NCBI GenBank assembly: GCA_937929815.1
Contig: CALFUW010000027.1
Coordinates: forward strand, 1-34,718
DNA length: 34,718 nucleotides
Direction: 5' to 3'
Source: an uncultured Flavobacteriales bacterium
GTDB lineage: Bacteria; Bacteroidota; Bacteroidia; Flavobacteriales; Schleiferiaceae
The stretch's first letter is position 1; every line of letters starts with the position of its first letter. The notes under the pieces are model-generated. The model ran no database searches. It was not told the DNA's origin and worked only from the letters and a program-made list of their open reading frames with translations. The position numbers were made by a program, and so were the translations under genes. Below, one piece after another: positions 1 through 34,611 of this stretch.

Positions 1-1207
1 GTATAGCCGGCTTCCTATTTTTCAAAGACAAGGAGATACAGCTTATAAGCCAGGGCTTGAACGTGCTCTTGCTCTGATGCACTGGCTTAATCACCCCTAT
101 AAGAGCTATCCATGTATCCATGTAGGAGGTACCAACGGAAAAGGTAGCGTATCCCACTTAATTGCAGCAGTGCTACAGTCTAAAGGACTTAAAACAGGAC
201 TATATACCAGCCCTCACTTATATGACTTTAGGGAGCGAATCAAAATAAACGGAAATAAAATTGATCAAAACTTTGTGCTTCAATTCGTTGAAAGGTTTAA
301 AAATGAAATGGCCTTCTCTGTAGAACCAAGTTTTTTTGAGCTTACGATGTCTATGGCTTTTGAATACTTTGCACACAGTGAGATCGATATCGCAGTTGTG
401 GAAGTCGGTATGGGTGGACGATTAGATTCTACCAATGTGATTACACCCATAGTAAGTGTTATTACCAATATTGGGTGGGATCATATGCAATTTCTGGGCG
501 ACTCTCTGCCAAAAATTGCCCTTGAAAAGGCTGGAATTATAAAACCCGAAGTACCGGTAGTCATTGGCGAACGACAACCAGAGGTGGCCGATATATTCGA
601 ACAGGTAGCATCTGTAAAACATGCACCTTTGTACTATGCATCCGATTTGTATCCAGAGCTGGACTTTGAGTGTGAGTTAAAAGGCGATTATCAGAAAAAA
701 AATACACGAACTGCCTATGCTGCTCTTCAGCTCTTGCCCAAAGATATAAAGCCCTCTCAGGAAGAAATCCTATCGGGATTTACTCATGTTAAAAAATACA
801 CCGGACTTCGCGGTCGTTGGGAGCTTCTATCAGAACGACCTTTGGTCATCGCAGACACAGCACATAATTTTGACGGTATCAAGGTGGTAATGGAGCAATT
901 ACAAAAAGAAAAACGTGGAAGACTATTTATGGTATGGGGCATGGTACGAGATAAAGATCCGGCTAAAATCTTTACACTTCTGCCAAAGGATGCATATTAT
1001 GTATTTACCACCCCGGACGTTCCAAGGGCCATGCCAATACCTGACCTAGAAATAAACGCCGATACATTCGAACTATCTTATGAATCTGTGCCAGGAGTCA
1101 TCCAAGCATATACCAAAGCATTACAACTGGCGACTGAAGAAGACACCGTGTATGTAGGAGGAAGCACATTTGTCGTCGGGGATCTTCTCAAAGAGTTGGA
1201 TCAATGA
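1..1207 (+). CDS. folC: Folylpolyglutamate/dihydrofolate synthase, 5' end cut off by window
   Basis: Mur-ligase-family enzyme that adds glutamate to (dihydro)folate using ATP, in the cytoplasm. The frame is open from base 2, before the first ATG at 77. The residues upstream of that ATG (SRLPIFQRQGDTAYKPGLER) match the usual FolC N-terminus, so the true start lies outside the window and 77 is not the start. About 401 residues are visible. Motifs are the P-loop GGTNGKGS, then TSPHL, EVGMGGRLD, NIGWDH, and a C-terminal DTAHNFDG in place of the more usual D-G-A-H-N. The stop lies 10 bp before the next gene on the same strand, so the two are probably co-transcribed. The family assignment is secure; whether it also has dihydrofolate synthase activity cannot be read from the sequence. 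Confidence 0.95.
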   Translation, partial: YSRLPIFQRQGDTAYKPGLERALALMHWLNHPYKSYPCIHVGGTNGKGSVSHLIAAVLQSKGLKTGLYTSPHLYDFRERIKINGNKIDQNFVLQFVERFKNEMAFSVEPSFFELTMSMAFEYFAHSEIDIAVVEVGMGGRLDSTNVITPIVSVITNIGWDHMQFLGDSLPKIALEKAGIIKPEVPVVIGERQPEVADIFEQVASVKHAPLYYASDLYPELDFECELKGDYQKKNTRTAYAALQLLPKDIKPSQEEILSGFTHVKKYTGLRGRWELLSERPLVIADTAHNFDGIKVVMEQLQKEKRGRLFMVWGMVRDKDPAKIFTLLPKDAYYVFTTPDVPRAMPIPDLEINADTFELSYESVPGVIQAYTKALQLATEEDTVYVGGSTFVVGDLLKELDQ

Positions 1208-1217
1208 TCATACAGCA

Positions 1218-3101
1218 ATGATCGAAACAGCTTACATTCTATGCGGGGGAAGAGGCACGCGGATGGGTACGATTTCGGAATCTATTCCCAAACCAATGCT
1301 TCCACTTCTTGGAAAACCCGTGCTCGAACATATCCTTCTCCAATGTAAGAGCAATGCGATTACCAATATCTGCTTGATTACCGGCCATCTGGGCCATGTG
1401 ATCAAAAATTATTTTAAAGACGGAAGTCGTTGGCATCTGTCCATTGAGTATTTCGAAGAGGAAGAACCACTGGGAACAACCGGTGCATTCAAATTTCTGG
1501 AAAATGAACTGCCGGAGACTTTCTGGATCTTTTACGGCGATGTCATTTTTGATGCTGATTTGATTCAAATGGTTCGGTATCACCGCGATAAAAAAGCTGA
1601 AATGACCATTGCGGTGCATCCGAATGACCATCCGTACGACAGCGATCTGATTGTGACCGATTCGACAGGCCGAGTCCTCCGCGTACATTCAAAACCCCAT
1701 ACTAGGCATTTAAAAGCGCGCAATCTCGTCAATGCCGCTTTGTATTTGACTGAAAAAAATGTAATCCGACACCTCCCATATGGAAAGAGTGACTGGGGTC
1801 GGGATCAATTACCGTTACTGACAAAAAAAATACCGGTGTATGCATGGCGTACCACGGAATACATAAAAGATATCGGTACACCTGATAGGATCAAAAAGGT
1901 GGAAAGTGATTTGATATCCGGAAAACCCTCCAGAAGGAATTTAAGAAATCTTCAGAAAGCTATTTTTTTAGACCGAGACGGGGTTCTCAATAAAGATATT
2001 GACTTAATCCATAGACCCGAACAACTCAAAGTTTATCCTTATACTGCCAGAGCTGTACGAAAAATAAATCAGAGCGACTATTTGTCCATCGTGGTCACAA
2101 ATCAAAGTGTGGTAGCCAGAGGTCTTGTGGATTTGGAAGGTCTGGACCAAATACACGCCGAATTGGATTATGCTCTTGCTCTGGAGCACGCCTATCTGGA
2201 CGATCTGTACTACTGTCCGCATCATCCGGATAAAGGATATCCGGGTGAGATTGCAAAGTTAAAAGTGGAATGCAACTGCCGGAAACCTGCCCCCGGAATG
2301 CTCTTGCAAGCAGCCGAAAAATACAATATCAATCTGGCAGATAGTTGGATTATCGGCGACCGACAAGCAGATATTGAGGCTGGAAAACTGGCAGGTTGTC
2401 AGACTGTTGGAGTTTTAACCGGCAATGCTCTGAAAAATATTTACATCGCGCCTGATTTTATTTTTCACAACCTTGAGCAGGCAATCGACTATATAATCGA
2501 AGACCCACACAAGAACCCCTCAAATGTCATCTACCGGAACTTTCTTCATTCTGACAAAAGACCCTATCTAATAGGTATTGCAGGAAACACAGGAAGCGGA
2601 AAATCAACTTTTGCAACCTATCTGACTAAATATTTTCAAAGAAGAAATGTAAAAGCAATCAAAATAGAACTCGACCACTGGATCCTGGCTCCTGAATTTC
2701 GCAGCGAAACTCATGACCTGAGAGAAGTATATCAGATTGACCGGATCGAAGAAGATTTGAAGAAGATTATAAGCGGGGAATCTATCATTCCTCCCGGATA
2801 TAAAAGACACCCAACGTGGAAAACCACCCCTCCGCGATATGAATTAACTCCTGATACTGATGTACTCATCGTGGAGGGTATAGTAGCATTTATGCCGGAA
2901 ATACTCAAATACAGATTTGACTACAAGGTTTTTTGTGAAGCTACTGAACAAAGATTTATGGATAATCTCTATAGCCTCAACAGTTGGAAAGGCAGAAGTA
3001 AGGAAGAAATCGGTTATCTGATCGAACGCAGGAAACAAACAGAATATCAGATAATCCAAAAACAAAAAAATATGGGAGACATGCAGCTCACTCTTAAATG
3101 A
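1218..3101 (+). CDS. Three-domain sugar-nucleotide enzyme: nucleotidyltransferase + GmhB-like HAD phosphatase + P-loop kinase
   Basis: 627 residues from ATG 1218. A longer start at 1170 would overlap folC and adds residues before the nucleotidyltransferase motif, so 1218 is preferred. Residues 1-235 are a sugar-1-phosphate nucleotidyltransferase (CGGRGTRMG near the start, then KPMLPLLGKP, YGDVIFDAD). Residues 247-410 are a HAD-IIIA histidinol-phosphatase/GmhB-type domain with LDRDG (D252, D254), TNQS, a CPH...CNC zinc-binding pattern, RKPAPGM and GDRQADIEAG. Residues 450-627 are a uridine-kinase/phosphoribulokinase-like domain with Walker A GNTGSGKST (456-464), EGIVAF and RRKQTEY. The first two domains recall HddC and GmhB of GDP-heptose synthesis; the kinase is not the GHMP-type HddA. 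Probably cytoplasmic and involved in making an activated sugar for surface glycans (inference). The substrate is unknown. Confidence 0.85.
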   Translation: MIETAYILCGGRGTRMGTISESIPKPMLPLLGKPVLEHILLQCKSNAITNICLITGHLGHVIKNYFKDGSRWHLSIEYFEEEEPLGTTGAFKFLENELPETFWIFYGDVIFDADLIQMVRYHRDKKAEMTIAVHPNDHPYDSDLIVTDSTGRVLRVHSKPHTRHLKARNLVNAALYLTEKNVIRHLPYGKSDWGRDQLPLLTKKIPVYAWRTTEYIKDIGTPDRIKKVESDLISGKPSRRNLRNLQKAIFLDRDGVLNKDIDLIHRPEQLKVYPYTARAVRKINQSDYLSIVVTNQSVVARGLVDLEGLDQIHAELDYALALEHAYLDDLYYCPHHPDKGYPGEIAKLKVECNCRKPAPGMLLQAAEKYNINLADSWIIGDRQADIEAGKLAGCQTVGVLTGNALKNIYIAPDFIFHNLEQAIDYIIEDPHKNPSNVIYRNFLHSDKRPYLIGIAGNTGSGKSTFATYLTKYFQRRNVKAIKIELDHWILAPEFRSETHDLREVYQIDRIEEDLKKIISGESIIPPGYKRHPTWKTTPPRYELTPDTDVLIVEGIVAFMPEILKYRFDYKVFCEATEQRFMDNLYSLNSWKGRSKEEIGYLIERRKQTEYQIIQKQKNMGDMQLTLK

Positions 3102-9067: not shown

Positions 9068-10126
9068 TTACCTGGATTGCTGTTGTTTGTAATTTAATTT
9101 TTTAATTTTATATTCAATGATGTGTTCATCGGGATCAAAGGGTTTAACCTTATCCAGCCCCATAAGCTCGACGGCTTTCTGAACAAGCATTTCTTCGGAA
9201 TATTCATTAATGTTTCGGATAAATTTTCTTTCCATTATATATCGTGAACTTCTTAGAATTTCGGAGATCGGTACCATACCGACCAGCTCAGAGCCTTTTA
9301 GTTCGATACCTCTCCTTCGAGCCAAGGTTTCCGTTAGCAGATATACCTCGCCCATGCCGTTAACTGAGATATCTACCAGATTGAACGAAACCTGTGAAAG
9401 ATTAAATTCAGGGATATACCATCCAATGGCCTTTACACTTTTCAAAAGACCTGGGATGCGTACAAACCCACCGCCGGGAGCGGGAACAATCTTACCTAAC
9501 TCCCGTATTTCGTAGGCAATTTCATTGGCTATTTTGTCGTCTTTATCCAGCAGATTGACATTATAAGCTACTAAAACTCCGCGAGTGCCAATCACTGTTA
9601 CTCCAAATTTAGAAATTGTATTTGGGTGAATTGATCCGAAATCAGGCCTCCAGTCGCGTTGTTTTAGCTTTTCCTGAAGGCCTTCATACTCCCCTTTGCG
9701 GATGTTTGCCAGGTTGGATCGCAAGTTGCTTCGGGCATTTTTTTCATAAAAATATCCGGCTATGCCGAGTTCATTACCAACCCGATGAGCAAATTGTGCA
9801 ACTTTAGGAATCAATTCATTATCTGTGATGCCTTCCCATGCAACAAAAGGACATACATCGACTGCTCCGATTCGAGGGTGAGAACCCTGGTGCTTTGACA
9901 TATCAATTAGTTCTAAGGCAGTCTTATAAATCTGAAATGCTGCTTCGAAAACAGCGTTGACCTCTCCAATAAATGTGTACACAGTTCGGTTCGCAGAAAT
10001 CCCACTATCAATGTTCAGGAGCATGACATTCGGTATTGATGTAATAGCATCCGCTATAGTTTTGATAATTTCGGGGTTACGCCCTTCGCTTACATTGGGC
10101 ACACATTCGATCAGTGGGGTTGTCAT
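9068..10126 (-). CDS. ftcD: Glutamate formimidoyltransferase
   Basis: Transfers the formimino group of N-formimino-L-glutamate to tetrahydrofolate, the folate-linked last step of histidine breakdown; cytoplasmic. I choose ATG 10126 (MTTPLIECVPNVSEGRN), 4 bp after the hutG stop, giving 352 residues; the frame from 10150 would overlap hutG. Motifs: ECVPNVSEGRN at the N-terminus, NRTVYTFIG, HQGSHPRIGAVDVCPF and the formyltransferase C-terminal half with LTETLARRRGIEL. The cyclodeaminase domain found fused in animals is absent, and no separate fchA-like gene is visible here. Last gene of hutI-hutG-ftcD. The 206 bp after it, to the end of the convergent module-protein gene, show no clear terminator. 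Confidence 0.93.
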   Translation of the reverse strand: MTTPLIECVPNVSEGRNPEIIKTIADAITSIPNVMLLNIDSGISANRTVYTFIGEVNAVFEAAFQIYKTALELIDMSKHQGSHPRIGAVDVCPFVAWEGITDNELIPKVAQFAHRVGNELGIAGYFYEKNARSNLRSNLANIRKGEYEGLQEKLKQRDWRPDFGSIHPNTISKFGVTVIGTRGVLVAYNVNLLDKDDKIANEIAYEIRELGKIVPAPGGGFVRIPGLLKSVKAIGWYIPEFNLSQVSFNLVDISVNGMGEVYLLTETLARRRGIELKGSELVGMVPISEILRSSRYIMERKFIRNINEYSEEMLVQKAVELMGLDKVKPFDPDEHIIEYKIKKLNYKQQQSR

Positions 10127-10130
10127 AGGG

Positions 10131-11198
10131 TTAGCTTTGCTTGGTTTCAATACTTTTTATAACGTCGAGTACAATTTGGGCCAGAAATTTTCCTGCAGCC
10201 ATTTTTTCTATAGGAGTGGGGGCAAGCTCAGGGGCAGCTTCAGACAGATGCACATATTTGATCTGTAATAAGGATGCGGCTTTTTTAATCAGAGAGCGCA
10301 TCATCTCAGGAGAAAATCCGCACGGATTGTATGCGCTGGCGGGAAGTCCCGTCACTGCGTCGAGATCAACTTCCAGTCCGCAGGGTTCAATGCTGAAATT
10401 TTCCAGAGCTTTATCCATCATTATGAGCCACTCACTGCGTTTGACGGCCAGAAGATCGTCGTACGATGTATATGTGACTACACCGTTGTTTTGGATGGAC
10501 TGAATTATAAATTCGTTGTTAAACTCTGTCTGTAATCCAAAGATGTGGTAATACTTGACCAGCTGTTCGTGAATAGCGTAGCTGAATCCATTTCCGGAAT
10601 GACGACCTTCCATCGCTCTCAAGTCAGCATGCATATCAATGTTCATGACTGCCAGAGGTTTCGACAGGGCAGTAGAAAATCCTTTAATGATGGGATAGGA
10701 ATTGTTGTGACCGCCACCGATAGCAATCAGGATTTTACCATGCGAAGCAATATACTCTGCCATATCCGCCACTATGGTATCAATTTCGGATGTCAGCTCT
10801 CTTAGCTTGACCAGATCAGTATTACGGCCAGGCGACAGCCCAGAAGATGCGGCCATCAGGTCATTGAGATTCAAAGATCCTCCTATTGCAATGTTATGAC
10901 CGTTGTAAATGCGATTGCTTTGCATATTAAGCATGGCAGGCAGGAAATACCTCCACGCACTTTCAGCTCCGGATCTTCCGAAATTGGCACGTATTCCAAT
11001 ATCCTCAGGAATTCCTATGATCACATACTTTATTTGCTGATTTTGTATAATTTCATAAAATTCATTTTCGTTTTGGGGCACCCGGCATACCTGACCAATA
11101 CGGGTTTCCCCCGGCCTTTTAATCAACTGGGCGGATATTACCTCATCGCTCACAAAGGTGAGTCTCTCCATTATGGCCGAATCAATCCACTTTTCCAT
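10131..11198 (-). CDS. hutG: Formimidoylglutamase (ureohydrolase/arginase family)
   Basis: Binuclear manganese hydrolase predicted to split N-formimino-L-glutamate into glutamate and formamide. 355 residues. Metal ligands are all present: H164 in GGGHNNS, D188/H190/D192 in NIDMHADLR, and D278/D280 in EVDLDAV. A late conserved acid occurs in HLSEAAPE. The start at 11198 overlaps the hutI stop by 17 bp; MERLTF at 11171 is an alternative. Sitting between hutI and ftcD supports formiminoglutamate rather than arginine or agmatine as substrate. Note that hutG and ftcD use the same substrate by different routes. The exact specificity within the ureohydrolase family is inferred from context. Confidence 0.85.
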   Translation of the reverse strand: MEKWIDSAIMERLTFVSDEVISAQLIKRPGETRIGQVCRVPQNENEFYEIIQNQQIKYVIIGIPEDIGIRANFGRSGAESAWRYFLPAMLNMQSNRIYNGHNIAIGGSLNLNDLMAASSGLSPGRNTDLVKLRELTSEIDTIVADMAEYIASHGKILIAIGGGHNNSYPIIKGFSTALSKPLAVMNIDMHADLRAMEGRHSGNGFSYAIHEQLVKYYHIFGLQTEFNNEFIIQSIQNNGVVTYTSYDDLLAVKRSEWLIMMDKALENFSIEPCGLEVDLDAVTGLPASAYNPCGFSPEMMRSLIKKAASLLQIKYVHLSEAAPELAPTPIEKMAAGKFLAQIVLDVIKSIETKQS

Positions 11199-12423
11199 TT
11201 ATGATGGTTTTATATATGAGATTTTCTGAAAAAAAATACGGGATTTGACTGAAATCATCGATGTGCTCAGTGAGCAAAAATGAAGCCATCTTCCCACGCT
11301 CGATGCTGCCGTGAGTTTGTCCTAAATCCATGGCAAAGGCACCGTTTATCGTAGAGAAGGCAAGGGCTTCTTCAGGGAGCATTTTCATCTTGATGCAGGC
11401 CAAAGCTATTACAAAGTTCATATTTCCAGAAGGACAGCTACCGGGATTAAAGTCAGAAGCAAGTGCCACGGCTACGTTTTTCTTTTTCATTTTTTTATAA
11501 TCGGGGTAGGGCAGATTCAGAAAAAAAGCCGTACCCGGAAGCAATGTAGCAATTGTTTCGCTTTGAGATAAGGCGTCGAACTCTTCTTCGCCTGCACGTT
11601 CGAGATGATCAACACTTAAAGCCCCGTGCAATACACCTACTTGTACACCACCGGAGTAGTCTAGTTCGTTGGCATGAATTTTAGGCTTAAATCCATACTT
11701 TGAAGCAGCCTCCAGAATTCGGGCTGTCTGATCGACGGTAAAGAATCCTTTGTCACAAAAGACATCGACGTAATCGGCAAGTCCGCTGTCGGCTACCACT
11801 GGCAGCATTCTTTCAATTAGGTAGTTTACGTATCCTTCCTGATTGTTTTTAAATTCAGGAGGTACAGCGTGTGCTCCGAGAAACGTTGATTTGATGACTA
11901 CGTCGGTTAGTTCCTTTAATCTGCGAATCACCGTCAGCATTTTCAATTCGGAAGCCAGATCCAATCCGTAGCCGCTTTTGATTTCGACTGCGACGGTACC
12001 TGTCTTAATCATAGACTGAAGACGTTGCAGGGCGCCCTCAAGAAGTTCTGAATCACTCATCTTTCTGAGCATAAGGGCTGATTGTATGATCCCTCCTCCC
12101 TTTGCGGCAATTTCTTCGTAGGACAACCCTTTAATTTTATCCACAAACTCTTCATGTCGCGACCTGGGAAATATGATATGGGTATGGCTATCGCAGTATC
12201 CGGGCAGGATACTTCGTCCGGTGCAGTCGATGATATCAGCTTCCGTTTCGACATTTTTTAAATCATTCATAAGACCATAGTCGATGATTGTATCATCTTC
12301 GATTTTTAAATAGGCGTTTTCCAGGGTTTTCAGCTGCATGTATTCATTGCCTCGCAGGGCACGTGTGATCCCTTCGGATATTCCATAGATTTTAAAAACG
12401 TTTGTATAATATCGGATAGCCAT
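11182..12423 (-). CDS. hutI: Imidazolonepropionase
   Basis: Zinc or iron amidohydrolase that opens 4-imidazolone-5-propionate to N-formimino-L-glutamate, third step of histidine degradation. 413 residues, the usual length. Metal and substrate residues: H80 and H82 in CDSHTHIIFPRSRHEEF, IKSGYGL (149-154), FLGAHAVPPEF, H250 and E253 in KIHANEL, DHLERAG, and D324 in ASDFNPGS. First gene of the operon; its 3' end overlaps hutG. The upstream enzymes HutH and HutU are not in this window and must be elsewhere if the pathway is complete. Confidence 0.96.
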   Translation of the reverse strand: MAIRYYTNVFKIYGISEGITRALRGNEYMQLKTLENAYLKIEDDTIIDYGLMNDLKNVETEADIIDCTGRSILPGYCDSHTHIIFPRSRHEEFVDKIKGLSYEEIAAKGGGIIQSALMLRKMSDSELLEGALQRLQSMIKTGTVAVEIKSGYGLDLASELKMLTVIRRLKELTDVVIKSTFLGAHAVPPEFKNNQEGYVNYLIERMLPVVADSGLADYVDVFCDKGFFTVDQTARILEAASKYGFKPKIHANELDYSGGVQVGVLHGALSVDHLERAGEEEFDALSQSETIATLLPGTAFFLNLPYPDYKKMKKKNVAVALASDFNPGSCPSGNMNFVIALACIKMKMLPEEALAFSTINGAFAMDLGQTHGSIERGKMASFLLTEHIDDFSQIPYFFSENLIYKTIINGKVD

Positions 12424-13724: not shown

Positions 13725-15041
13725 CTATTGAGGTATGGATCCCGATATCTGGCCCGTAATCAGCATCAGCTGGACATAAGAGAGGAGGCTGTTCAGATAG
13801 GCTTCTTCCATCCTAAGTTTGGCATTGAGCAGAGATGTCTGGGAATTTCTGAATTCCAAATCGCTGATTCTTCCTTGTTTATACTGAATTTCAGAGATTT
13901 TGGTTTGTTCGGCTACCGTTTCCTGATTAGCGCGTTCGAGGTGGTAAATATTTATATTGGTTGCAAGTTGATTATAGGTGTTTTCGAAGAGTTCACGCAG
14001 TTCGAGTTCCAATTGCCTGGTTTGAAGTTCTGCATTTTCTGTTTCAATCATGAAGGCTTTTCTCCGATTGCGGTCGGCCAACCCATTAAAGAGGTTCCAT
14101 CGAAAGAGTAGCCCCGCGTTGGTACCATCGACGGCGAGTGATTTCAATACCCCAATTTCATTCTGCTGGCGCACCAGGCTGTATTCTCCGAAAAGACCTA
14201 CCTGAGGCAGGAAATCGGCAATGGTACCTTGGTCACGGTACTTCAATGACTTGTGACGCAATCTTGCACTTTGAAGTGAATTGTTTTGATTTTTCATGAG
14301 CTCAAGCCATTGATATTTTGGAGGTAATTCGATGGCTGGTAAAGGGGTGGCAGATAGCCCAGTCTGCTGCACAGCAACATCAGTAAGCCGAAGTAATCTC
14401 GCTGATAATTGTTGAAAAATCAACTCTTCACGGAGATAGGCGGCACTATCCTGATTGAAATCCTGTACTGCCTGAAGGTATTCAAACGATGAGATTCGAC
14501 CGATGGAGTACCTGGATTCCACCAGGCGCAACCGGGTTCGGCTGATTTCAAAATTTTCTTTTACATGAAGAAGAATATTTTGCTGAATTCTGGCCGAATA
14601 GTACGTAGTGAACAAATCGAGCAATGCATTTTCAACCGCAATTCTCAACTCGGTTTCAGCCAAAATTTCCTGAATCTGAAGTTCATTTTTGAGCGCAAAC
14701 ATTCTAAATCCGTCAAAAATCATCCATTCCAATCGGGCAGTAGCATTAAATCCCTGGCTTCGTGCATTGTTTGCCGAACTTTTCTGACCAGAAAAAAATT
14801 CCAGGTCTGTATTCTGTGTACTTTGGTTGGCTCCTGCCAGGATGTCGAGTGTCGGAAGCATACCTGCCTGTCCCGGATTATTCATTAGGTCGGCCATAGC
14901 CACAGTATTGCGTGCCATTTGTATTTGTGGGTGATTTACCAGTAACTTTTCAATTAGATGACTGATCAGCGTATCCTGCGCAAAAAGCAAGCTAAATGAA
15001 CTATTAAGAAAGGTAAATATCAGCAGGTTACGAATTTTCAT
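13725..15041 (-). CDS. TolC-like outer membrane efflux protein
   Basis: Outer membrane factor of a tripartite efflux pump. 438 residues with signal peptide MKIRNLLIFTFLNSSFSLLFAQ. The body is long amphipathic helices with many Gln, Asn and Ala residues and two repeated halves typical of the OEP family (SRTRLRLVESRYSIGRISSFEYL in part and EIQYKQGRISDLEFRN are equivalent positions in the two halves). The start overlaps the RND gene end by 14 bp, so translation is probably coupled. Fourth gene of marR-MFP-RND-OMF. Confidence 0.93.
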   Translation of the reverse strand: MKIRNLLIFTFLNSSFSLLFAQDTLISHLIEKLLVNHPQIQMARNTVAMADLMNNPGQAGMLPTLDILAGANQSTQNTDLEFFSGQKSSANNARSQGFNATARLEWMIFDGFRMFALKNELQIQEILAETELRIAVENALLDLFTTYYSARIQQNILLHVKENFEISRTRLRLVESRYSIGRISSFEYLQAVQDFNQDSAAYLREELIFQQLSARLLRLTDVAVQQTGLSATPLPAIELPPKYQWLELMKNQNNSLQSARLRHKSLKYRDQGTIADFLPQVGLFGEYSLVRQQNEIGVLKSLAVDGTNAGLLFRWNLFNGLADRNRRKAFMIETENAELQTRQLELELRELFENTYNQLATNINIYHLERANQETVAEQTKISEIQYKQGRISDLEFRNSQTSLLNAKLRMEEAYLNSLLSYVQLMLITGQISGSIPQ

Positions 15042-18000
15042 ATTTCTTTCGTCCAGACAAAATCAAATACAGTGATGGTATAATAAACAGCGTGAGCAAG
15101 AGGGAAAACAACAATCCCCCTATCACCACAATGCCCATAGGAACCCTGGAGGTGGCACCCCCGGCTAAGGCCAATGCAATAGGTACGGCACCTAAAATCG
15201 TGGCCAAAGAAGTCATCAGGATCGGCCTCATGCGCTGAACAGAGGCCTCCAGTACTGCCCGTTTTATTTTCAGGCCCTGCTGGCGTTTTTGATTGGCAAA
15301 CTCGACGATCAAAATGCCGTTTTTTGTCACAATTCCGATGAGAACAATTATGCCTATCTGACTGAAAATATTGAGAGTTTGACCTGTTAGATACAGTGAA
15401 AATACTGCTCCTGCAAGAGCCAATGGCACTGTAAACATAATAATTAGCGGGTCTCTAAAACTCTCAAACTGAGCAGCAAGCACCAGATATACAAGCAGCA
15501 ATGCGAAGACGAAAGCAAAGTTGAGGCTTCCGCTACTGTCCTCAAATTCTTCGGAAGGCCCGGCAAGTGAGTACGAAAACGTTTCATCCAGCACTTCCTT
15601 TCCGATGCGCTTCATCTCTTCTATTCCTTGCCCAAGGGTGACACTCTTGGCCGTATTGGCCGATACTGTAGCCGAAACATATCGGTTGTAGCGGTATAAA
15701 ACGGGTGGGGCAGCCGTTTCGGTGTATTCGATGACATTAGAGAGTGGAATCAGTTCATTTCGGTTATTTCTCACGTAGACCTTTTCAAAATCAGCCGGTT
15801 CATCGCGGTAGAGCCGATCTGCCTGACCGATTACTTGATATTGCTTGTTGTTCATTAAAAAATACCCGTACCGCTGGCCGGTGAACATCAGCTGGAGGCT
15901 CTGTGCTACATCTGCGATGGACACACCAAGTGTAGCTGCACGCTCTCGGTTGATCTGAATGTTCATCTCAGGCTTGTTAAATTTCAGGTTTACATCCACA
16001 AATTGAAATTTACCGGATGTATTCGCTCTTTCAATAAATTCCGGTAATACCTCTTTGAGACGGTTAAAATTAGGAGCCTGAATGACAAACTGGACAGGAA
16101 GACTAGTGAATCGATTGCCTCCAATGGTTTGATCCTGAGATACGAAGGTGCGCGAAAAATTGTATTTCTGTAAAATTGCACTTAATTCATCTGCAAGTTC
16201 TTGTTGGGATTTTTTCCTTTTGGAAGGATCCTTCAGCATTAGCCTTATGAATCCGCTGTTGACTGATACAGATGCTCCAAAACCAGGTGAAGTTACACAG
16301 AGAAGGTTTTCCTTCTCGGGGATAGTATCCATCAGCTCAATCAAGTCTGACATGTAGTCAAACATGCTTTCATAAGATGTTCCCTCCGGGGCAGTGGCAA
16401 TGATTCTTAACCGGCTTTTGTCTTCGAGAGGTGCCAACTCCGAGGGGACCTTTCGACCGACCAAAATTGTAATGGCTACTGTGACAAGCACAACCATTAG
16501 AGCTATTACCGGTTTATCTAAAAATTTTGAAAGCAAAAACTGATATCTGCGGTTAAGGATCAAAAAAAATGCTTCTGATTTTTTATAAAACTGCGTTTCT
16601 TTCTTTTGTTTTTTCAAAAGTCTGGAGCTCAGCATGGGTGTCAAGGTGAGTGAAATAAACGTAGAAATAATAATAGCCCCTGAAACAACGATGGCAAATT
16701 CTCTGAATAGTTTTCCCGTGATACCTTGTAAAAATACGATGGGTAGGAATACAGCAACCAGTGTGAATGTTGTGGAGATAATTGCAAAAAAGATTTCTGA
16801 AGCTCCAATATGTGCTGCTTTGATTGGTTTTACTCCTTTTTCTATTTTAGAGTAAATGTTTTCCATCATCACAATGGCATCATCTACAACCAGACCGGTA
16901 GCCAATACAATGCCGAGCAAAGTCAATATATTGATGGTGTAGTCAAATATGTAAATGACAAAAAACGTCCCGATGAGTGATATCGGAATTGCTATGATCG
17001 GGATCAGAGTAGTTAGCCAGTTGCGGAGAAAGAGAAAAATGATGAGCACAACCAGCAAAAAGGCGATCACAATAGTATTTTGCACTTCACTGATTGCTTT
17101 GCGTACCGGGACCGTGCTATCCAGAGCAATGCCCAGAATCAGATCGTCGGGAAGTTCCTTTTTGATCTGATTGACCTTTTCGTAGACCTTGTCGGCGAGT
17201 TCGATTACATTGACACCGGGTTGAGGAGTAATGGCTACGCCGATCATGGGCTGTCCGCCGTCACCACGAAGAATAGAACGCTCGTTTTCAGGTCTTAACT
17301 CTGCGATGCCCACATCCCTCAACCGAATAATCCTGCCGTCTCGTTCACGAAGAATGAGGTTGTTGAACTCTTCGGTGGTCGATAGCCTGCCGAGTGTCTT
17401 TACGGAGAGTTCTGTCCGAAATCCTTCTACGCGGCCTGCCGGAATTTCTACGTTTTCACGATTCAGAGCGTTTTGTATGTCCTGAGGTGTAATGTCGTAG
17501 TAGGCCATTTTGAGGGGGTTAAGGGTCAATTTCATTGAATATTTTTTCTCACCCCAGATATTAATTTCGCTGACACCCGAAATATTTTGCAGACGTTCTT
17601 TAAAAATGTTTATTCCTATATCCGTAAGCTCCAGAAGATTGCGTTGATCACTTTGCACGGTAATGGAGATAACCGGGTCTGCATTTGCATCCGACTTTAC
17701 TACTACAGGCGGATCACAGTCAGCCGGCAACCGCCGAATGGCTCTTGATACACGATCACGCACATCGTTGGCTGCATCTTCGAGTGAAGTTTCCAGGTCA
17801 AATTCTACACTGATGGTACTTCTTCCGTCACTACTCGTCGAGGTAATCGATTTTATACCCGAAATTCCGTTGATGGATTCTTCCAGCGGATCTGTGATCT
17901 GAGACTCGATGACTTCTGCATTTGCACCGGGATAATTGGTAGTGACCGTTACAACGGGCGGATCTACGGAGGGAAGTTCACGTACTCCCAGAAAGGTATA

Positions 18001-18099
18001 ACTGATTACCCCAAACAGTATAATGATCAATGAAAGTACAGATGCCAGCACGGGCCTGTCAATACTGATAGATGCCAGAGATTGCGAACGCTTACTCAT
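15028..18099 (-). CDS. RND efflux transporter, AcrB/MexB-like inner membrane pump
   Basis: Proton-driven exporter of the hydrophobe/amphiphile RND family, 1023 residues from ATG 18099 (MSKRSQSLASISIDRPV); the frame open to 18105 would begin with TTG. Twelve membrane segments are expected: one at the N-terminus, then a large porter loop (PGANAEVIESQITDPLEE), TM2-6 with the proton-relay Asp pair in TGLVVDDAIVMMEN, and TM8-12 with VTKNGILIVEFAN. It lacks the CusA heavy-metal signature as far as I can see, so the substrate is more likely drugs, detergents or bile-like compounds (inference). It starts 12 bp after the MFP stop. Confidence 0.96.
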   Translation of the reverse strand: MSKRSQSLASISIDRPVLASVLSLIIILFGVISYTFLGVRELPSVDPPVVTVTTNYPGANAEVIESQITDPLEESINGISGIKSITSTSSDGRSTISVEFDLETSLEDAANDVRDRVSRAIRRLPADCDPPVVVKSDANADPVISITVQSDQRNLLELTDIGINIFKERLQNISGVSEINIWGEKKYSMKLTLNPLKMAYYDITPQDIQNALNRENVEIPAGRVEGFRTELSVKTLGRLSTTEEFNNLILRERDGRIIRLRDVGIAELRPENERSILRGDGGQPMIGVAITPQPGVNVIELADKVYEKVNQIKKELPDDLILGIALDSTVPVRKAISEVQNTIVIAFLLVVLIIFLFLRNWLTTLIPIIAIPISLIGTFFVIYIFDYTINILTLLGIVLATGLVVDDAIVMMENIYSKIEKGVKPIKAAHIGASEIFFAIISTTFTLVAVFLPIVFLQGITGKLFREFAIVVSGAIIISTFISLTLTPMLSSRLLKKQKKETQFYKKSEAFFLILNRRYQFLLSKFLDKPVIALMVVLVTVAITILVGRKVPSELAPLEDKSRLRIIATAPEGTSYESMFDYMSDLIELMDTIPEKENLLCVTSPGFGASVSVNSGFIRLMLKDPSKRKKSQQELADELSAILQKYNFSRTFVSQDQTIGGNRFTSLPVQFVIQAPNFNRLKEVLPEFIERANTSGKFQFVDVNLKFNKPEMNIQINRERAATLGVSIADVAQSLQLMFTGQRYGYFLMNNKQYQVIGQADRLYRDEPADFEKVYVRNNRNELIPLSNVIEYTETAAPPVLYRYNRYVSATVSANTAKSVTLGQGIEEMKRIGKEVLDETFSYSLAGPSEEFEDSSGSLNFAFVFALLLVYLVLAAQFESFRDPLIIMFTVPLALAGAVFSLYLTGQTLNIFSQIGIIVLIGIVTKNGILIVEFANQKRQQGLKIKRAVLEASVQRMRPILMTSLATILGAVPIALALAGGATSRVPMGIVVIGGLLFSLLLTLFIIPSLYLILSGRKKYENS

Positions 18100-18111
18100 A
18101 ATCAATCTTAA

Positions 18112-19188
18112 CTATTCCTGTATTGAGAGAGAAGTCGTAGGTCTGACGGGGGTGCCTGACCTTACTAGTAATATCCCGGAGGCTACCAAAGTGTCTCCGG
18201 GATTCAATCCACTTAAGATCTCTACATACACGGCATCTCTGCGACCGACTTGAACGGTATTGGCTCGGGCCGTGCCATCATTTACAGTATACACAATCTG
18301 ACGCCCAAGTTGAGGGACTATACAGTCGGCCGGCACTTTTAGTACATTACTTTTACTTTTTACTTGTAAAGCAGCTTTGACATACACACCTGGAAAAAGA
18401 CCAGAGGATGGCTTACTGATTTTTGCTCGTATTTTGTTAGACCTTAGCACTCTGTCTATTACAGGTTCTACTGCATAGACTATTGCCACCGATGTATCTG
18501 AAAGATATTCCCCAAATATCTCTAGGGTGTCTCCCACTCGTACCAGACCGATAAAACGTTCAGGCAGATCAACTTCTATTTTTAATGGATGAATTTGCCA
18601 GAATTGTACAATAGATTGCTGATTGCTGACAAAGCTGCCGGGACTTAACTGCCTAAGACCTGCCACTCCCGTAAAGGGCGCACGTATGCTGTGTTTTTCT
18701 ACCAACACACTGGCCGCTGATACCTCCGCTTTAAGTTGTAGATACCGGCTCTTCGCTGTTTCGTATTCTTCTTCAGACGCCCCGCCGGTCCTGAGTAGGG
18801 TAGCAGTTCTATTGTAGACTTTTTCAGCCTGCTCGAACTGTGCTTCAAGGGATTGAAGACGAGCGATGGCCTCTCTGGCATCAAGTTGTACCAAAATATG
18901 CCCTTTTTGTACGATCTGACCCTCTTCAAAATGAATGGAAACCACCTTTGCAGCTACTTCAGAAGTGATGTTTACCTGCTCTGAAGGAAGTATCTCTGCA
19001 TTGGTAACAAAAAGTTCGGATGAGGACTCTGGATTTATAACATAATATGATACCTCCAAAGGTGCAGGGGATCTTTTCTCTGACCCGGCAGATGATGAGG
19101 TACAAGATGTAAATCCTAGTAATGTTGCAAAAGTTGCAATTAAGATTAATATGTAGTAAGAAGACGATTCTTGATCATTATCGGGCAT
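18112..19188 (-). CDS. RND periplasmic adaptor (membrane fusion protein)
   Basis: Periplasmic adaptor linking the RND pump to the TolC-like channel. 358 residues. The N-terminal hydrophobic stretch ends GFTSC; C29 is a possible lipidation site although F at -3 is unusual. Next come the lipoyl half-motif (VNITSEVAAKVVSIHFEEG, VQLDAREA), a helical hairpin (about 100-155), the second half RAPFTGVAGLRQLSPGSFV, a beta-barrel region with LPERFIGLVRVGD, and a membrane-proximal end with VGRRDAVYVEILSGLNPGD. Its start overlaps the marR end by 11 bp. Confidence 0.94.
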   Translation of the reverse strand: MPDNDQESSSYYILILIATFATLLGFTSCTSSSAGSEKRSPAPLEVSYYVINPESSSELFVTNAEILPSEQVNITSEVAAKVVSIHFEEGQIVQKGHILVQLDAREAIARLQSLEAQFEQAEKVYNRTATLLRTGGASEEEYETAKSRYLQLKAEVSAASVLVEKHSIRAPFTGVAGLRQLSPGSFVSNQQSIVQFWQIHPLKIEVDLPERFIGLVRVGDTLEIFGEYLSDTSVAIVYAVEPVIDRVLRSNKIRAKISKPSSGLFPGVYVKAALQVKSKSNVLKVPADCIVPQLGRQIVYTVNDGTARANTVQVGRRDAVYVEILSGLNPGDTLVASGILLVRSGTPVRPTTSLSIQE

Positions 19189-19675
19189 AATCGAGCTTTT
19201 TTCGGGATTTTTCCTGTTTGTAATTGATTTTTATAGACACTTTTGGTTCTTTCTCAATATTTTCAATTATTCTACCAAGAACTTTGTAAAAAGTTTCCTT
19301 TTCGTGCTCATCAATACCCACTAGACAAACGGTATTCAGATTTGCATACGCTTTTTTGATCTCTGGTATGGCCTTCATTCCTTTAGGTGTGAGATAGAGA
19401 TACATAGATCTCCTGTCCTCCGGATTAACTTCACGGCGGACATATCCTACACGGCAAAAATGATCTACAACTCTAAAAGTTGTGACCTTATCAGTCTGGA
19501 GTTTGTCTGCAAGCTGCTGCTGTGTGATTTCGGGCTGATGTTCGTAGATGGTGATCAGGGTGAAGAAGTAACGGTTAATGTCAAGATGCTTCAGTTTTTT
19601 TGAAACTGCCCCGATGTACTGTTTTGTCAAATAGGCAAAATACACTGCCAGTGGTTGATTTGGATCGATCTTCAT
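19178..19675 (-). CDS. MarR-family transcriptional regulator of the efflux operon
   Basis: 165 residues. Winged helix-turn-helix with ITQQQLADKLQTDKVTTFRVV as recognition region and a wing carrying VNPEDRRSMYLYLT, which includes the conserved D-x-R of MarR proteins. N- and C-terminal helices should form the dimer interface. It is the first gene of the operon and overlaps the adaptor gene, so it probably represses its own operon and releases it on binding a small lipophilic ligand (family knowledge plus inference). The C-terminus is lysine- and arginine-rich. Confidence 0.9.
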   Translation of the reverse strand: MKIDPNQPLAVYFAYLTKQYIGAVSKKLKHLDINRYFFTLITIYEHQPEITQQQLADKLQTDKVTTFRVVDHFCRVGYVRREVNPEDRRSMYLYLTPKGMKAIPEIKKAYANLNTVCLVGIDEHEKETFYKVLGRIIENIEKEPKVSIKINYKQEKSRKKLDYAR

Positions 19676-19932: not shown

Positions 19933-22833
19933 TCACTTAAGCAAGGCATCATAGATTAACTGTTGAATCCTCGTCCGATATGCGTGTTTTAAGAGTTTTT
20001 CATTCCCGGCGTCAGGATATACCCGGTTGGAAAGAAATATGTACACAATCTTTTCAGTGGGATCTGCCCATGCCAACGTACCAGTAAATCCTGAGTGTCC
20101 AAAGCTCTCCATCGACAAGCACCCACAGGTCGGTCCATCCCCAGAGAGCTGCGGTTTGTCAAATCCGATGCCTCTCCGATTGCCCTCTGTGCAAAACTGA
20201 CAGCGGATAAATTCATTAATAACGAGAGAATCAAACACTTCTAATTGTGCATATCTGCCATGAAATACGTACAACTGCATCAATTTGGCCAAATCGTAGG
20301 CATTTCCAAACAATCCGGCATGGCCTGCGACACCTCCGAGCATGGCTGCTCCCTGATCGTGAACATAACCATGAATCAACTGACGGCGGAAGGTATGGTC
20401 CAATTCTGTCGGAACGATTTCACTTCTTGAAAATTTTCTGATAGGATTAAAAAGCAGTCTGTCTGCACCAATCGGATGATAAATATTCCTTATAAGCCAG
20501 GAATCCAAAGGTTCATTCAGATGGCTTTCAACTACCTCTTTTAGAAGGTAATACCCTAAATCGCTATACTTGTATTTTCCATACTCGTGAAGGCCGGATT
20601 CGAGAATTTTTCCTAGGATGGTGTCTTTGTACTGCCGGTGTATGTACATACTGTCCGCTACCTGGTAGGGATATTCGTAAGATTTAGACGATGCATACAC
20701 ACCAGGCTTAAAATTGCCTTTAGAAAGTGTTGACTGATAAAACGGAATCCATGGCTGAAGGCCTGCCCGATGGGTGAGAATATCACGGATAGAAAGATTC
20801 TCCTTGTTTGTGCCCCTGGCTGCCGGGAGATGTTCGCCGAGTCTGTCGTCAAGGTTAATCTTACCAGTTTGGACCAGGTACATAATTGCTGGTACAGAGG
20901 CTGCTATTTTTGTAACAGATGCGAGGTCATACAGGTGGTCGAGCATTACTGGTAAAGAGGAGGGCTCATAGGTATGCCGACCAAAAGCTTTGTAATAAGC
21001 CACCTTCCCATTTCTCGCCACAAGAATCTGACAGCCCGGATATGCCCCCTGAGCAATGCCTTCCAGGGCCAGCTTGTCAATGCCAGATAGAATTTGCTGA
21101 TTGAATCCGCACAGATTGGGCGTAGCAAGCCCCAGCACTGGGAATTCAGGTGTTTGTATTCCATATCCTTGCGGAAAATCAGGAAGAATGCTTACTGGTA
21201 ATTTTCCTCGAATGGGGGTGTGACCAAAGAGGGTATTGATTACTGCGAGGCCTGTCTCCCGATTGTTTTGATACGCGACCAGCGCAGCTGATGTGTACCT
21301 TAGCTCTTCGAATGCACTCAGATCATAAGGATTTCCCATGTGAATATAGACTACCTTGGTTTGGAGCGATGCAAGATTGATAAGCTTTCTAAGGCTTTGA
21401 GGCACCGTATATCGCACCCAGGGATTGCCCCCTTGAGGAGATGTCATTACAAACAGGTAATCATGCTTCCAGAGATTATTGAGTACTTCCAGGGTTTTAG
21501 TGCTGTCAAATACTTGATGTGTAATGGGAATACTAATTTTCAGATGATGCAAAAAGAGAGAATCCAACGGACCTGTAGACAAGACCATGACAGATTTGGG
21601 GTAGGGAGGCAGTATGGGTAAGGTGCGTGCCTTGTTTACAAGCAGTGTGATGGATTTTTCAGCAGTTCGAAATCGAATGTTTTCAACTTCACTGGATTGG
21701 AGGTCCTGGTCTATCCGACCTGGATTTACAGGATTGTATGAGTGTAGTCCCATCCAGTATTTGGCCTGGAGAATTTTCCTGACTTTTAGATTCAATTGAT
21801 CTATGGTTAACTTTCCGGATTCGACAGCTTTTTTGATCGCAGAGATACCTCCGATCACATCTTGCGACATCAGCACTACATCTGCCCCTGCAGATACAGC
21901 CATCAGGTCGGTATGCTCCTGACCTTTAAATGTGGCTACCCCTTTCATATTCATAGCATCGGTAAAAATTAGTCCGTCAAATCCTATATTTTCAATCAAA
22001 AGATCACCTGTAATCTTTTTAGACAGTGAAGATGGCAATCCCGATGCATCCAGAGCCGGTACATTCAGATGAGCGATCATCACAGATCCGATTCCGGCCT
22101 CTGTCAAAGCCTTAAAAGGCCTTAACTCGACTTGGTGAAGCCGATCAAGCGGATGTTCTACTTTGGGCAAGGTGAGGTGAGAGTCATCTTTTGTATCTCC
22201 ATGTCCGGGAAAATGCTTGGCACAAGCCAGTATCCGAAGTCGCTGAAGTCCGTGAACGTAGGATGTGCTCATCCGAATGACCAGATCGGCATCCTCTCCA
22301 AAAGATCGGGCTCCAATGATCGGATTTTTTGGATTGGTATTGATATCCGCTACCGGCCCGAAATTTATGTGTACGCCCATACGTCTGCACTGACGCGCTA
22401 TCTCCCGCCCGACCTCAAAAGCTATAAGGGTATCATCCGTAGCACCGATGGTCATCGCCCAGGGAAGGGATTCAAGCATTTTGAGACGCATCGAAGGACC
22501 CCACTCCGCATCCATCGCGATCATCAATGGAATTTTTGAAATGGATTGAAGTGAATTGGTCATATCCACCTGTTTCGAGGGTGATCCCTGGAAGAATATT
22601 AACCCACCGATATGGTGCCGTTCTACCAGATTTCGGAGTTCACGTAGGTGCTTCTCATCCTTATTGCTGTAGGCTGCCACCATATAGAGCTGACCGATCT
22701 TTTGGTCTAAGGTCATGGTTTTCAGTATACTATCAGCCCATCTTTGGTCTTCATACCAGAAAACAGCCTTAGGCTGCTGAGCCAGAGCTACAGAGCCTGT
22801 CGCCAGAAGGGCTAAGAGGAGAATAGTTTTCAT
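19933..22833 (-). CDS. Secreted GH3 beta-N-acetylglucosaminidase fused to a beta-lactamase-fold hydrolase
   Basis: 966 residues from ATG 22833, which starts the signal peptide MKTILLLALLATGSVALAQ; the frame to 22872 adds an unlikely leader. Residues 25-370 are a GH3 NagZ-type barrel: FGPVADINTNP, ARSFGED, the KHFPGHGDTKDDSH loop (206-219) with the acid/base His-Asp pair, and the nucleophile D292 in FTDAMNMKG. A GH3 C-terminal-like sandwich follows (to about 570). Residues 590-966 are a class C beta-lactamase/esterase-type domain: SVTK (S639, K642), YSD (756-758) in the Y-x-N position, and GHSGFTG near the end. It probably acts on peptidoglycan fragments in the periplasm. Such fusions occur in Bacteroidota. 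Whether the second domain hydrolyses beta-lactams, peptides or esters is unknown. Confidence 0.92.
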   Translation of the reverse strand: MKTILLLALLATGSVALAQQPKAVFWYEDQRWADSILKTMTLDQKIGQLYMVAAYSNKDEKHLRELRNLVERHHIGGLIFFQGSPSKQVDMTNSLQSISKIPLMIAMDAEWGPSMRLKMLESLPWAMTIGATDDTLIAFEVGREIARQCRRMGVHINFGPVADINTNPKNPIIGARSFGEDADLVIRMSTSYVHGLQRLRILACAKHFPGHGDTKDDSHLTLPKVEHPLDRLHQVELRPFKALTEAGIGSVMIAHLNVPALDASGLPSSLSKKITGDLLIENIGFDGLIFTDAMNMKGVATFKGQEHTDLMAVSAGADVVLMSQDVIGGISAIKKAVESGKLTIDQLNLKVRKILQAKYWMGLHSYNPVNPGRIDQDLQSSEVENIRFRTAEKSITLLVNKARTLPILPPYPKSVMVLSTGPLDSLFLHHLKISIPITHQVFDSTKTLEVLNNLWKHDYLFVMTSPQGGNPWVRYTVPQSLRKLINLASLQTKVVYIHMGNPYDLSAFEELRYTSAALVAYQNNRETGLAVINTLFGHTPIRGKLPVSILPDFPQGYGIQTPEFPVLGLATPNLCGFNQQILSGIDKLALEGIAQGAYPGCQILVARNGKVAYYKAFGRHTYEPSSLPVMLDHLYDLASVTKIAASVPAIMYLVQTGKINLDDRLGEHLPAARGTNKENLSIRDILTHRAGLQPWIPFYQSTLSKGNFKPGVYASSKSYEYPYQVADSMYIHRQYKDTILGKILESGLHEYGKYKYSDLGYYLLKEVVESHLNEPLDSWLIRNIYHPIGADRLLFNPIRKFSRSEIVPTELDHTFRRQLIHGYVHDQGAAMLGGVAGHAGLFGNAYDLAKLMQLYVFHGRYAQLEVFDSLVINEFIRCQFCTEGNRRGIGFDKPQLSGDGPTCGCLSMESFGHSGFTGTLAWADPTEKIVYIFLSNRVYPDAGNEKLLKHAYRTRIQQLIYDALLK

Positions 22834-22947
22834 GTGCCGAACAGCAGTTTCAGCCAAAAAAACGAAGACCATGCCTGATAATTGATTGGTGAGGAAAAAG
22901 ATTTTAATATCCCGTTGTTATTGAAAATCGAAAATATGCATGGGACA

Positions 22948-32445: not shown

Positions 32446-34611
32446 ATGAAGGTGTGCTTGCGTTTGTTTATAGCGTCTTTTATATTATATTTCCCTCATG
32501 TAGAAGCGCAGAACACACATACAATTGAAGTAAATTTTGACTTCAACTTCACTCAAAATACAATACGAATCCAGTATATAATTTCTCCTCCCTACTCAAA
32601 AGAGTTATTTGAATACCAATTTAGACCGTATAGCATTCAGGACTTCAGGTCATATGTCTTAAAACCCCGAGAAGCAGCATCTTATATACTAAAGGACGGA
32701 AGGCTTGGTATTCAACACTCTGGAAATATTCATCACAAATATCAGTTTTACAGCGAGGTTACACTCGACCAGTTGATCACAGACCAACTCTTGATTGTCA
32801 CTTCCCGAGGCTATGAATTAAAGTATGCTGATGAAAATTCGGATAAAATATTCCCAAAACCAGTAAAGGGGAATCCTCAATATCAGATATCGGTGTGCTC
32901 CGATTTAAAAATGTCACTATCAGGCAAATCATCTGTTTTGTTTACTGATTCAAAAAGACAACGAGATTGCATTTTTAAGGTCGGTCTTTCAATGATGGAC
33001 CTTAGATCAATAGTCATTTCATTCTCTAGGCCTGCTGTAATCGCCTCCGATGCATCGGCTGAGCGACCTAAACCGCCATCAGCTGAAAACATTGACAAAT
33101 CCAGGGCACAAAAGCCGATTGATTACAGACAAATATTAACTGAAAACCCTCCGTGTAAAGTACGCGCATCATTGGCCTATTCAGATAGTTGCAGAGTGGA
33201 TTCAGCTGTCGTTCCAACGGATTTTTACCCGCCGTTTAATACCTATTATTATCTCACTGCCAGGTCTTTGGATCTGGATTTGTTCTGTATTAAGTCCGAG
33301 TTGATTTTGTGTGAACAACAGAACTGGGATATTCTGGAATTTTTGAACGCCTACGAATTGGTCACTGAACTTTTGAAGGACGAGAACAAACAGAATACTC
33401 AAATTACACTGCGAAATATCGTCGATAATCACACAAAAAATTCAGGATACTTCAATGCCACACGATTGTATTACATAGGTTTGATTTACAATTTATATTA
33501 CCACAACGGACTGGATGCCATTAAAAAAATGGTACAAACCTATGTGTATCAATATGCTAATAAGAGTGTATTCGATGTCATTAGAGAGCAGAATCTTTTC
33601 ACTGAATATGAAAAAACTCAATTTCAAATGCCTGCCAAAACACCCCTATCAATACGCTACGAACTAAACTACCATGCTACGTCCGGCGGATATCGGATAC
33701 ATTTTGCGGACTCTGCCGGTCTATTGAAACCCGGAATAAAACTTACCTGGGTCATCTACTTAAAAAATCAGAAGATTGATACTGTAACAACCACCACCAC
33801 CGGTAGTCAACACGTAATTTTTGATATTTCATCTGACTCTGAGATTGTATTTATATATCCCCAATGGGAGGAAAGCCTTATGGTTCCGACCGTAGAGAGA
33901 AGACCTGATTATCACGCCATACTGGAGCTCAACAATGGATATACACCTCTAAACCGATATCGGGCTTTTCGAACAATGATCTCCACCGGAAATCCGAATT
34001 TGCTGGCTACAGCGGTATCACTGGCACTCGACGACAGCCTCCCCCAGATACAAAGCATTGGATTTGATAGACTGGACGAGGTCCCTGAATATCAGGTTCA
34101 GAAAGTAAAGGATGGATTGCTTCGCAGCCTGGCAGTTTCTGACGCGTTTACACGACCTACAGCTTACCGTAATGCTGAGCGATTACATCTGATGGTCCGA
34201 AGACCGGTGATCAGCGATCAGTATAAATCCAATCTTTATGCAGATTTACAGGTGCTTAAGCAGTTTGAAGGCCTGAAGGCCATTGATCTTGCTCTTGAAA
34301 GTTTTATTGAAGGAAACAGCGATGAAGGATTGATCTGGTTTTTAGCAGAAAATGCCGAAAGAGAAGTCATAGATCTATTGCTCACTTTCGAATATGGCTC
34401 CGATCTCCGCGATATATTGAAACGACTCCTGGTCGTATATCAGGCACGATTATTCACTGCCGACAAGAGAAAAGGCGATTTTCTTCCCAATGCTTCTGAG
34501 TTGATTGATCGATTAAAATCAGCCGGTATTCCAACAGATGCTGTTAAAATATTACTTTCAAACCTTGAAATAAACACACAACTTTTTAAAGCATCTTTCA
34601 CCAATCGATAA
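32446..34611 (+). CDS. Exported M1-aminopeptidase-like protein lacking the zinc site
   Basis: 721 residues with signal peptide about 1-22 (ending HVEAQ). I do not recognise it as a named family by strong motif. The order resembles an M1 peptidase: an N-terminal beta-rich region (to about 200), a helical part with Y-F-N-A-T-R-L-Y-Y-I-G-L then a YVYQYANKSVFD segment (about 340-380), a beta-sandwich ending with FIYPQWEESL (about 475), then a helical repeat C-terminus with LNRYRAFRTMI and AVSLALDDSL. No HExxH, no downstream Glu motif and no GxMEN are present, and the stretch where the catalytic domain should be is short and carries a low-complexity linker (about 205-235). It is probably an inactive relative with a scaffold role (inference). 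It directly precedes a probable rseP. Confidence 0.6.
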   Translation: MKVCLRLFIASFILYFPHVEAQNTHTIEVNFDFNFTQNTIRIQYIISPPYSKELFEYQFRPYSIQDFRSYVLKPREAASYILKDGRLGIQHSGNIHHKYQFYSEVTLDQLITDQLLIVTSRGYELKYADENSDKIFPKPVKGNPQYQISVCSDLKMSLSGKSSVLFTDSKRQRDCIFKVGLSMMDLRSIVISFSRPAVIASDASAERPKPPSAENIDKSRAQKPIDYRQILTENPPCKVRASLAYSDSCRVDSAVVPTDFYPPFNTYYYLTARSLDLDLFCIKSELILCEQQNWDILEFLNAYELVTELLKDENKQNTQITLRNIVDNHTKNSGYFNATRLYYIGLIYNLYYHNGLDAIKKMVQTYVYQYANKSVFDVIREQNLFTEYEKTQFQMPAKTPLSIRYELNYHATSGGYRIHFADSAGLLKPGIKLTWVIYLKNQKIDTVTTTTTGSQHVIFDISSDSEIVFIYPQWEESLMVPTVERRPDYHAILELNNGYTPLNRYRAFRTMISTGNPNLLATAVSLALDDSLPQIQSIGFDRLDEVPEYQVQKVKDGLLRSLAVSDAFTRPTAYRNAERLHLMVRRPVISDQYKSNLYADLQVLKQFEGLKAIDLALESFIEGNSDEGLIWFLAENAEREVIDLLLTFEYGSDLRDILKRLLVVYQARLFTADKRKGDFLPNASELIDRLKSAGIPTDAVKILLSNLEINTQLFKASFTNR

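What the first reader, a model, noticed from the sequence alone, without database searches (positions are those of the whole stretch)
1218..3101. Nucleotidyltransferase-phosphatase-kinase fusion
One protein carries three activities that normally belong to separate steps of activated-sugar synthesis: a sugar-1-phosphate nucleotidyltransferase, a GmhB-type phosphatase with its zinc motif, and a uridine-kinase-like P-loop kinase. The first two resemble the GDP-heptose pair HddC and GmhB. The third is not the usual GHMP sugar kinase, so this may be a compact route with a different kinase or a different sugar. Catalytic motifs of all three look intact.
Basis: partly seen in the sequence, partly recalled or inferred. 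Interest (0 to 1): 0.6.

Follow-up and report, generated by a model that had tools for sequence, protein, structure and literature searches.

The report
Heptose-activation enzyme with extra kinase domain
One bacterial protein joins the last two enzymes that make the activated sugar GDP-heptose to a third, uncharacterised kinase domain; the kinase is not the usual sugar kinase of that route, which most relatives still carry as a separate gene next door, so its substrate is an open question.

Summary
The three-domain protein is real: ATG 1218, 627 aa, with a nucleotidyltransferase, a GmhB-type zinc phosphatase and a PRK/uridine-kinase-fold domain. The domain order recurs in about 40 proteins found here, mostly Flavobacteriales and Bacteroidales. 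The first two domains, without the kinase, are widespread.

The proposed "compact route with a different kinase" is not supported. The normal GHMP kinase HddA and the isomerase GmhA lie beside the fusion in most relatives. HddA occurs in 19 of 19 other three-domain genomes of the window's neighbourhood and 0 of 8 fusion-free family members. The kinase domain was lost at least twice while HddA and GmhA stayed. It is an add-on, not the C1 kinase. In the window's own 70%-complete genome GmhA was found but HddA was not.

The kinase domain is a distinct subfamily: below every NCBIfam cut-off, its own tree group (support 87), and found only fused in ~690 Bacteroidota and Thermodesulfobacteriota genomes. 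Its core residues are conserved and it is under purifying selection. Best reading: a GDP-heptose HddC-GmhB enzyme carrying an accessory (phospho)sugar kinase of unknown substrate. New variant of a known kind, moderate interest.

The parts
1218..3101 (+). Whole gene, 627 aa: nucleotidyltransferase - GmhB-like phosphatase - PRK/UCK-fold kinase
1233..1910 (+). Nucleotidyltransferase domain (residues 6-231; GGRGTR, PKPM, DIGTP)
   Evidence: Pfam PF00483 E 7.8e-30; motif positions
1953..2501 (+). GmhB-like HAD-IIIA phosphatase domain (residues 246-428; DxD FLDRDGVLN, zinc motif CPHH...CNCRKP)
   Evidence: NCBIfam PRK08942 E 7.8e-46, TIGR01656 above cut-off; motif positions
2568..3086 (+). PRK/uridine-kinase-fold domain (residues 451-623)
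   Evidence: PF00485 E 2.8e-14; AlphaFold2 pLDDT 94; Foldseek to UCK and PRK structures
2583..2609 (+). Walker A of the kinase domain, GNTGSGKST (residues 456-464)
   Evidence: Gly-456, Gly-461 and Lys-462 in 34 of 34 relatives, Ser/Thr-463 in all
2670..2681 (+). LDHW, subfamily signature with putative catalytic Asp-486 and invariant Trp-488
   Evidence: Asp and Trp in 34 of 34
77..1207 (+). Upstream neighbour (context, not part of the enzyme): folylpolyglutamate synthase-like Mur ligase; hddA and gmhA are not next door in this genome
   Evidence: same upstream cluster in L102 and L103

Best explanation
The protein is a bifunctional HddC-GmhB enzyme. [quoted passage not shown] GmhA (isomerase) and HddA (GHMP C1 kinase), separate and in most relatives adjacent genes, supply the bisphosphate. 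To this a third domain is fused: a catalytically competent-looking kinase of a distinct PRK/uridine-kinase subfamily. It is not the C1 kinase of the route. Most likely it phosphorylates another small molecule tied to the same heptose supply, for example a free heptose or heptulose or its phosphate (salvage, feeding or modification). Shown here: architecture, gene linkage, co-occurrence, repeated loss, conservation. Inferred: catalytic activities and the nucleotide used. The kinase substrate is a guess.
For: Domains and motifs. hddA within three genes in 22 of 34 three-domain and 53 of 66 two-domain loci; directly followed by hddA then gmhA in 20 of 34 (cluster survey). HddA in 19 of 19 other three-domain and 6 of 6 two-domain genomes, 0 of 8 fusion-free family genomes; also in 9 of 10 further three-domain genomes. 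GmhA in the window's own genome at C43:7574-8137. Kinase lost at least twice inside the family while HddA and GmhA remained. Kinase subfamily found only fused in 395 Bacteroidota and 297 Thermodesulfobacteriota genomes. Core kinase residues invariant in 34; dN/dS about 0.12-0.25 in the three pairs where dS could be estimated.
Against: NCBIfam equivalog cut-offs for HddC (85 of 300 bits) and GmhB (156 of 178) are not reached, so the sugar and nucleotide are not fixed by sequence. HddA was not found in the window's own genome, nor at the site where its nearest relative has it, nor in G515. No direct evidence for any kinase substrate.
Confidence: 0.75

Rival explanations
1. Compact route: the third domain replaces HddA and phosphorylates heptose 7-phosphate at C1, so that one protein plus GmhA makes GDP-heptose.
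For: A kinase is exactly the activity missing from a HddC-GmhB pair. In the window's own genome GmhA is found but HddA is not, and the place that holds hddA in the nearest relative holds other genes here. G515 also has no HddA hit.
Against: HddA is present in 19 of 19 other three-domain genomes of the neighbourhood, including the same-genus G001, and in most relatives next door. The third domain is lost where HddA stays. The window's genome is only 70% complete.
Confidence: 0.1
2. Plain uridine/cytidine kinase (nucleotide salvage) fused by chance.
For: Best profile match in PDB is uridine kinase; best folds are UCK2 and PRK. The window's genome and most of its family have no other PRK-family kinase.
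Against: udk model 36 of 220 bits. Own tree group apart from UCK and PRK. Standalone PRK/Udk-type kinases coexist with the fusion in G507, G509, G510, G511 and G512, and the one in G511 groups with the Udk-type kinases (L013_alone). Fusion-free family genomes live without any PF00485 hit over the cut-off. The subfamily was found only fused to heptose enzymes.
Confidence: 0.08
3. Redundant, regulatory or decaying appendage without a needed catalytic role.
For: The kinase domain evolves faster than the other two (about 9% of columns at least 90% conserved against 27-32%) and was lost at least twice. In the window's clade a lid Arg is Asn.
Against: Walker A, LDxW, Arg-495, Tyr-528, Gly-554, Trp-590, Arg-605 and Glu-609 invariant across 34 divergent sequences; dN/dS about 0.12-0.25 in the three pairs with usable dS.
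Confidence: 0.12

Closest known systems
[quoted passage not shown]
   Same: Nucleotidyltransferase and zinc HAD phosphatase; linked to gmhA and hddA
   Different: Here the two are one chain, and a third domain is added; curated HddC and GmhB cut-offs not reached
Two-domain nucleotidyltransferase-GmhB proteins (~430 aa) of many phyla
   Same: 41-51% identical over the first two domains, same gmhA/hddA neighbourhood
   Different: No kinase domain
Uridine-cytidine kinase (UCK/Udk)
   Same: Fold, Walker A, EG motif
   Different: Lacks the P-x-Y-D-[FY] element; lid differs; 36 of 220 bits for udk in the window
Phosphoribulokinase (PRK)
   Same: Best single-chain match of the window's domain (5b3f, archaeal PRK); similar C-terminal R...I....AD stretch
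   Different: 57 of 236 bits; separate tree group; no C-terminal PRK part
1rz3 / PRK07667-type Bacillus kinases
   Same: SRSGK Walker A and DDxI...KR stretch align well
   Different: Standalone; the one 1rz3 row falls outside the fused group; function unknown

Membership tests
GDP-heptose HddC-GmhB enzyme | Nucleotidyltransferase and GmhB-type HAD domains with their motifs | tested here: met
GDP-heptose HddC-GmhB enzyme | Linked to or co-occurring with gmhA and hddA | tested here: met
   Met in relatives. In the window's own genome gmhA only; hddA not found in a 70% complete genome
GDP-heptose HddC-GmhB enzyme | Score above curated HddC (NF049965) and GmhB (NF006506) cut-offs | tested here: not met
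   85 of 300 and 156 of 178 bits; so not filed as a formal equivalog of either, only as working like the pair
GDP-heptose HddC-GmhB enzyme | Activity on heptose bisphosphate and with GTP | not testable with these tools
   needs enzyme assay
GHMP sugar kinase (HddA) | GHMP fold and motif in the third domain | tested here: not met
   PRK/UCK fold
Uridine kinase (udk) | Score above udk cut-off and PxYD[FY] substrate element | tested here: not met
   36 of 220 bits; alignment columns
Phosphoribulokinase | Score above PRK cut-off, groups with PRK | tested here: not met
   57 of 236 bits; tree
PRK/uridine kinase superfamily (PF00485) | Above Pfam gathering score; fold | tested here: met
   53.8 bits against 22; Foldseek E 8.9e-11 to UCK2

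The most novel reading that the evidence does not exclude
The third domain is an undescribed sugar- or sugar-phosphate-kinase subfamily dedicated to heptose metabolism, giving a phosphorylated heptose or heptulose (or salvaging free heptose) in addition to the normal GDP-heptose route.
Probability: 0.4. Interest if true: 0.5.

Novelty: new variant of a known kind. Interest (0 to 1): 0.37.

Why it matters
A kinase subfamily that in the genomes searched is seen only welded to the GDP-heptose enzymes, yet is not the pathway's kinase, points to an extra and so far unnamed reaction in heptose metabolism of many Bacteroidota. It also warns against assigning pathway steps from domain order alone: the expected kinase is next door.

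Tried and rejected
Rejected: chance ORF or misassembly (same architecture in about 40 proteins). Rejected as general explanation: HddA replacement. Rejected: plain uridine kinase. dN/dS could not be computed for most pairs because dS is saturated. Not run: full-length structure prediction, and a test of anomer (alpha/beta) specificity of the GmhB domain.

Full report
OBSERVATION. The gene runs from ATG 1218 to the stop ending at 3101 on the + strand, 627 residues; an upstream TTG at 1170 would overlap the preceding folC-like gene. Pfam finds a nucleotidyltransferase (6-231), a HAD phosphatase (246-428) and a PRK/uridine-kinase domain (451-623). NCBIfam puts the second domain next to GmhB (E 7.8e-46) and the first among mannose-1-phosphate guanylyltransferase, archaeal GlmU and HddC relatives, all under their equivalog cut-offs. 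The motifs are present.

DISTRIBUTION. A scan of genome contigs returned 17 full-length three-domain relatives (L002-L018) and 63 two-domain ones, mostly of about 430 aa. In the search of 60 relatives of the window's genome, 20 full-length three-domain proteins were listed, the window's own included, plus six two-domain ones. Others are G067 and G480, probably G069 and G068 (kinase part seen), and L016/G501 and G549 in Thermodesulfobacteriota. The window's family includes Owenweeksia-like Flavobacteriales (L003, titled Owenweeksia, matches contig G013:C39).

GENE NEIGHBOURHOOD. Clustering of neighbouring genes gave two dominant partners: a GHMP kinase with HddA-type sequence (cluster 1) and a SIS isomerase with GmhA-type sequence (cluster 2) (identified from sequence features and established family knowledge, not from a curated model). 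hddA lies within three genes in 22 of 34 three-domain loci and 53 of 66 two-domain loci; in 20 of 34 three-domain loci the next two genes are hddA then gmhA. L008 has the start of hddA at its contig end and is not in that count. G480 and G549 also have hddA directly downstream.

CO-OCCURRENCE. Among 34 genomes, HddA was found in all 19 three-domain genomes other than the window's and all six two-domain genomes, and in none of eight family members without a full fusion. These genomes are related, so this is not 33 independent observations. GmhA follows nearly the same pattern. Of ten more three-domain genomes nine have HddA; G515 does not. The window's own genome (1.45 Mb, 70% complete) has GmhA but no HddA hit. 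In the nearest relative, G001, hddA stands beside a flippase-like gene. The homologous place in the window's genome (C57) has that gene, but it is followed by a glycosyl-hydrolase-65-like gene and others (my reading of the sequences), with no hddA. So hddA has moved, is lost, or lies in the missing part.

EVOLUTION. A tree of the first two domains (102 rows) puts nearly all three-domain proteins in one Bacteroidota group, with two sets of two-domain proteins nested inside the window's family (G005/G032; G011 with L019-L021). That is most simply two or more losses of the kinase domain, while HddA and GmhA stay in those family genomes. The kinase is dispensable for the route. L016 and L168 sit elsewhere, so more than one gain or transfer is possible.

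THE KINASE DOMAIN. 24 members were aligned (A1). Eleven columns are invariant, including Walker A glycines and lysine, D486, W488, R495, Y528, W590, R605 and E609 (numbered in the window protein). AlphaFold2 gives a confident model (pLDDT 94). Its best solved matches are uridine-cytidine kinases and phosphoribulokinases at about 19-26% identity. The window's domain falls well short of the NCBIfam cut-offs (udk 36 of 220, PRK07429 57 of 236). In a tree with standalone kinases and PDB references the 26 fused domains form one group (support 87) apart from UCK and PRK. With profile A1 the fused members score 117 bits or more and the next, standalone kinases about 75 or less in 395 Bacteroidota genomes. 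Among 297 Thermodesulfobacteriota genomes only the two fused members pass 1e-20. Five three-domain genomes carry a separate standalone PRK-family kinase as well. The domain is less conserved than the other two but under purifying selection where measurable (0.224, 0.249 and 0.115). In the window and its two closest relatives the lid position 583 is Asn instead of the common Arg.

MECHANISM. By established knowledge of the route (Campylobacter HS:2; PMC10680097): GmhA makes heptose 7-phosphate from sedoheptulose 7-phosphate, HddA phosphorylates C1, GmhB removes the 7-phosphate, HddC couples the 1-phosphate to GTP. The window protein fits steps three and four. The third domain is then an extra kinase. 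Its conserved arginines and Tyr/His pair recall PRK, which binds a sugar phosphate; this is a lead from memory and sequence alignment, not a test. A (phospho)sugar linked to heptose supply is the most natural substrate given exclusive fusion, but no substrate is demonstrated.

VERDICT. Observation confirmed. I found no description of this architecture in the open-access library searched; subscription literature was not searched.

Noticed in passing
19933-22872 (-): Glycoside hydrolase family 3 fused to a beta-lactamase-type domain (979 aa); a combination I recall from other Bacteroidota, not checked.
   Followed up: partly
13725-19675 (-): RND efflux set: outer membrane factor, AcrB-type pump, HlyD-type adaptor and a MarR-type regulator in one run.
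   Followed up: partly
9068-12423 (-): Formiminotransferase, arginase-family and amidohydrolase genes in a row, which looks like histidine degradation.
   Followed up: partly
window residue 583 (2964-2966): Lid position of the kinase domain is Asn in the window where 30 of 34 relatives have Arg; this clade also lacks hddA and gmhA next door.
   Followed up: partly
L190:3787-8006 (window genome contig C57): Where the nearest relative has hddA, the window's genome has a glycosyl-hydrolase-65-like gene, a phosphoglucomutase-like HAD gene, a methylglyoxal-synthase-like gene and a sugar-kinase-like gene.
   Followed up: partly
L102:7394-7894: Tandemly repetitive stretch just downstream of the fusion in the same-genus genome G001.
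   Followed up: no
32446-34611 (+): 721-aa ORF with no Pfam match at 1e-5.
   Followed up: no
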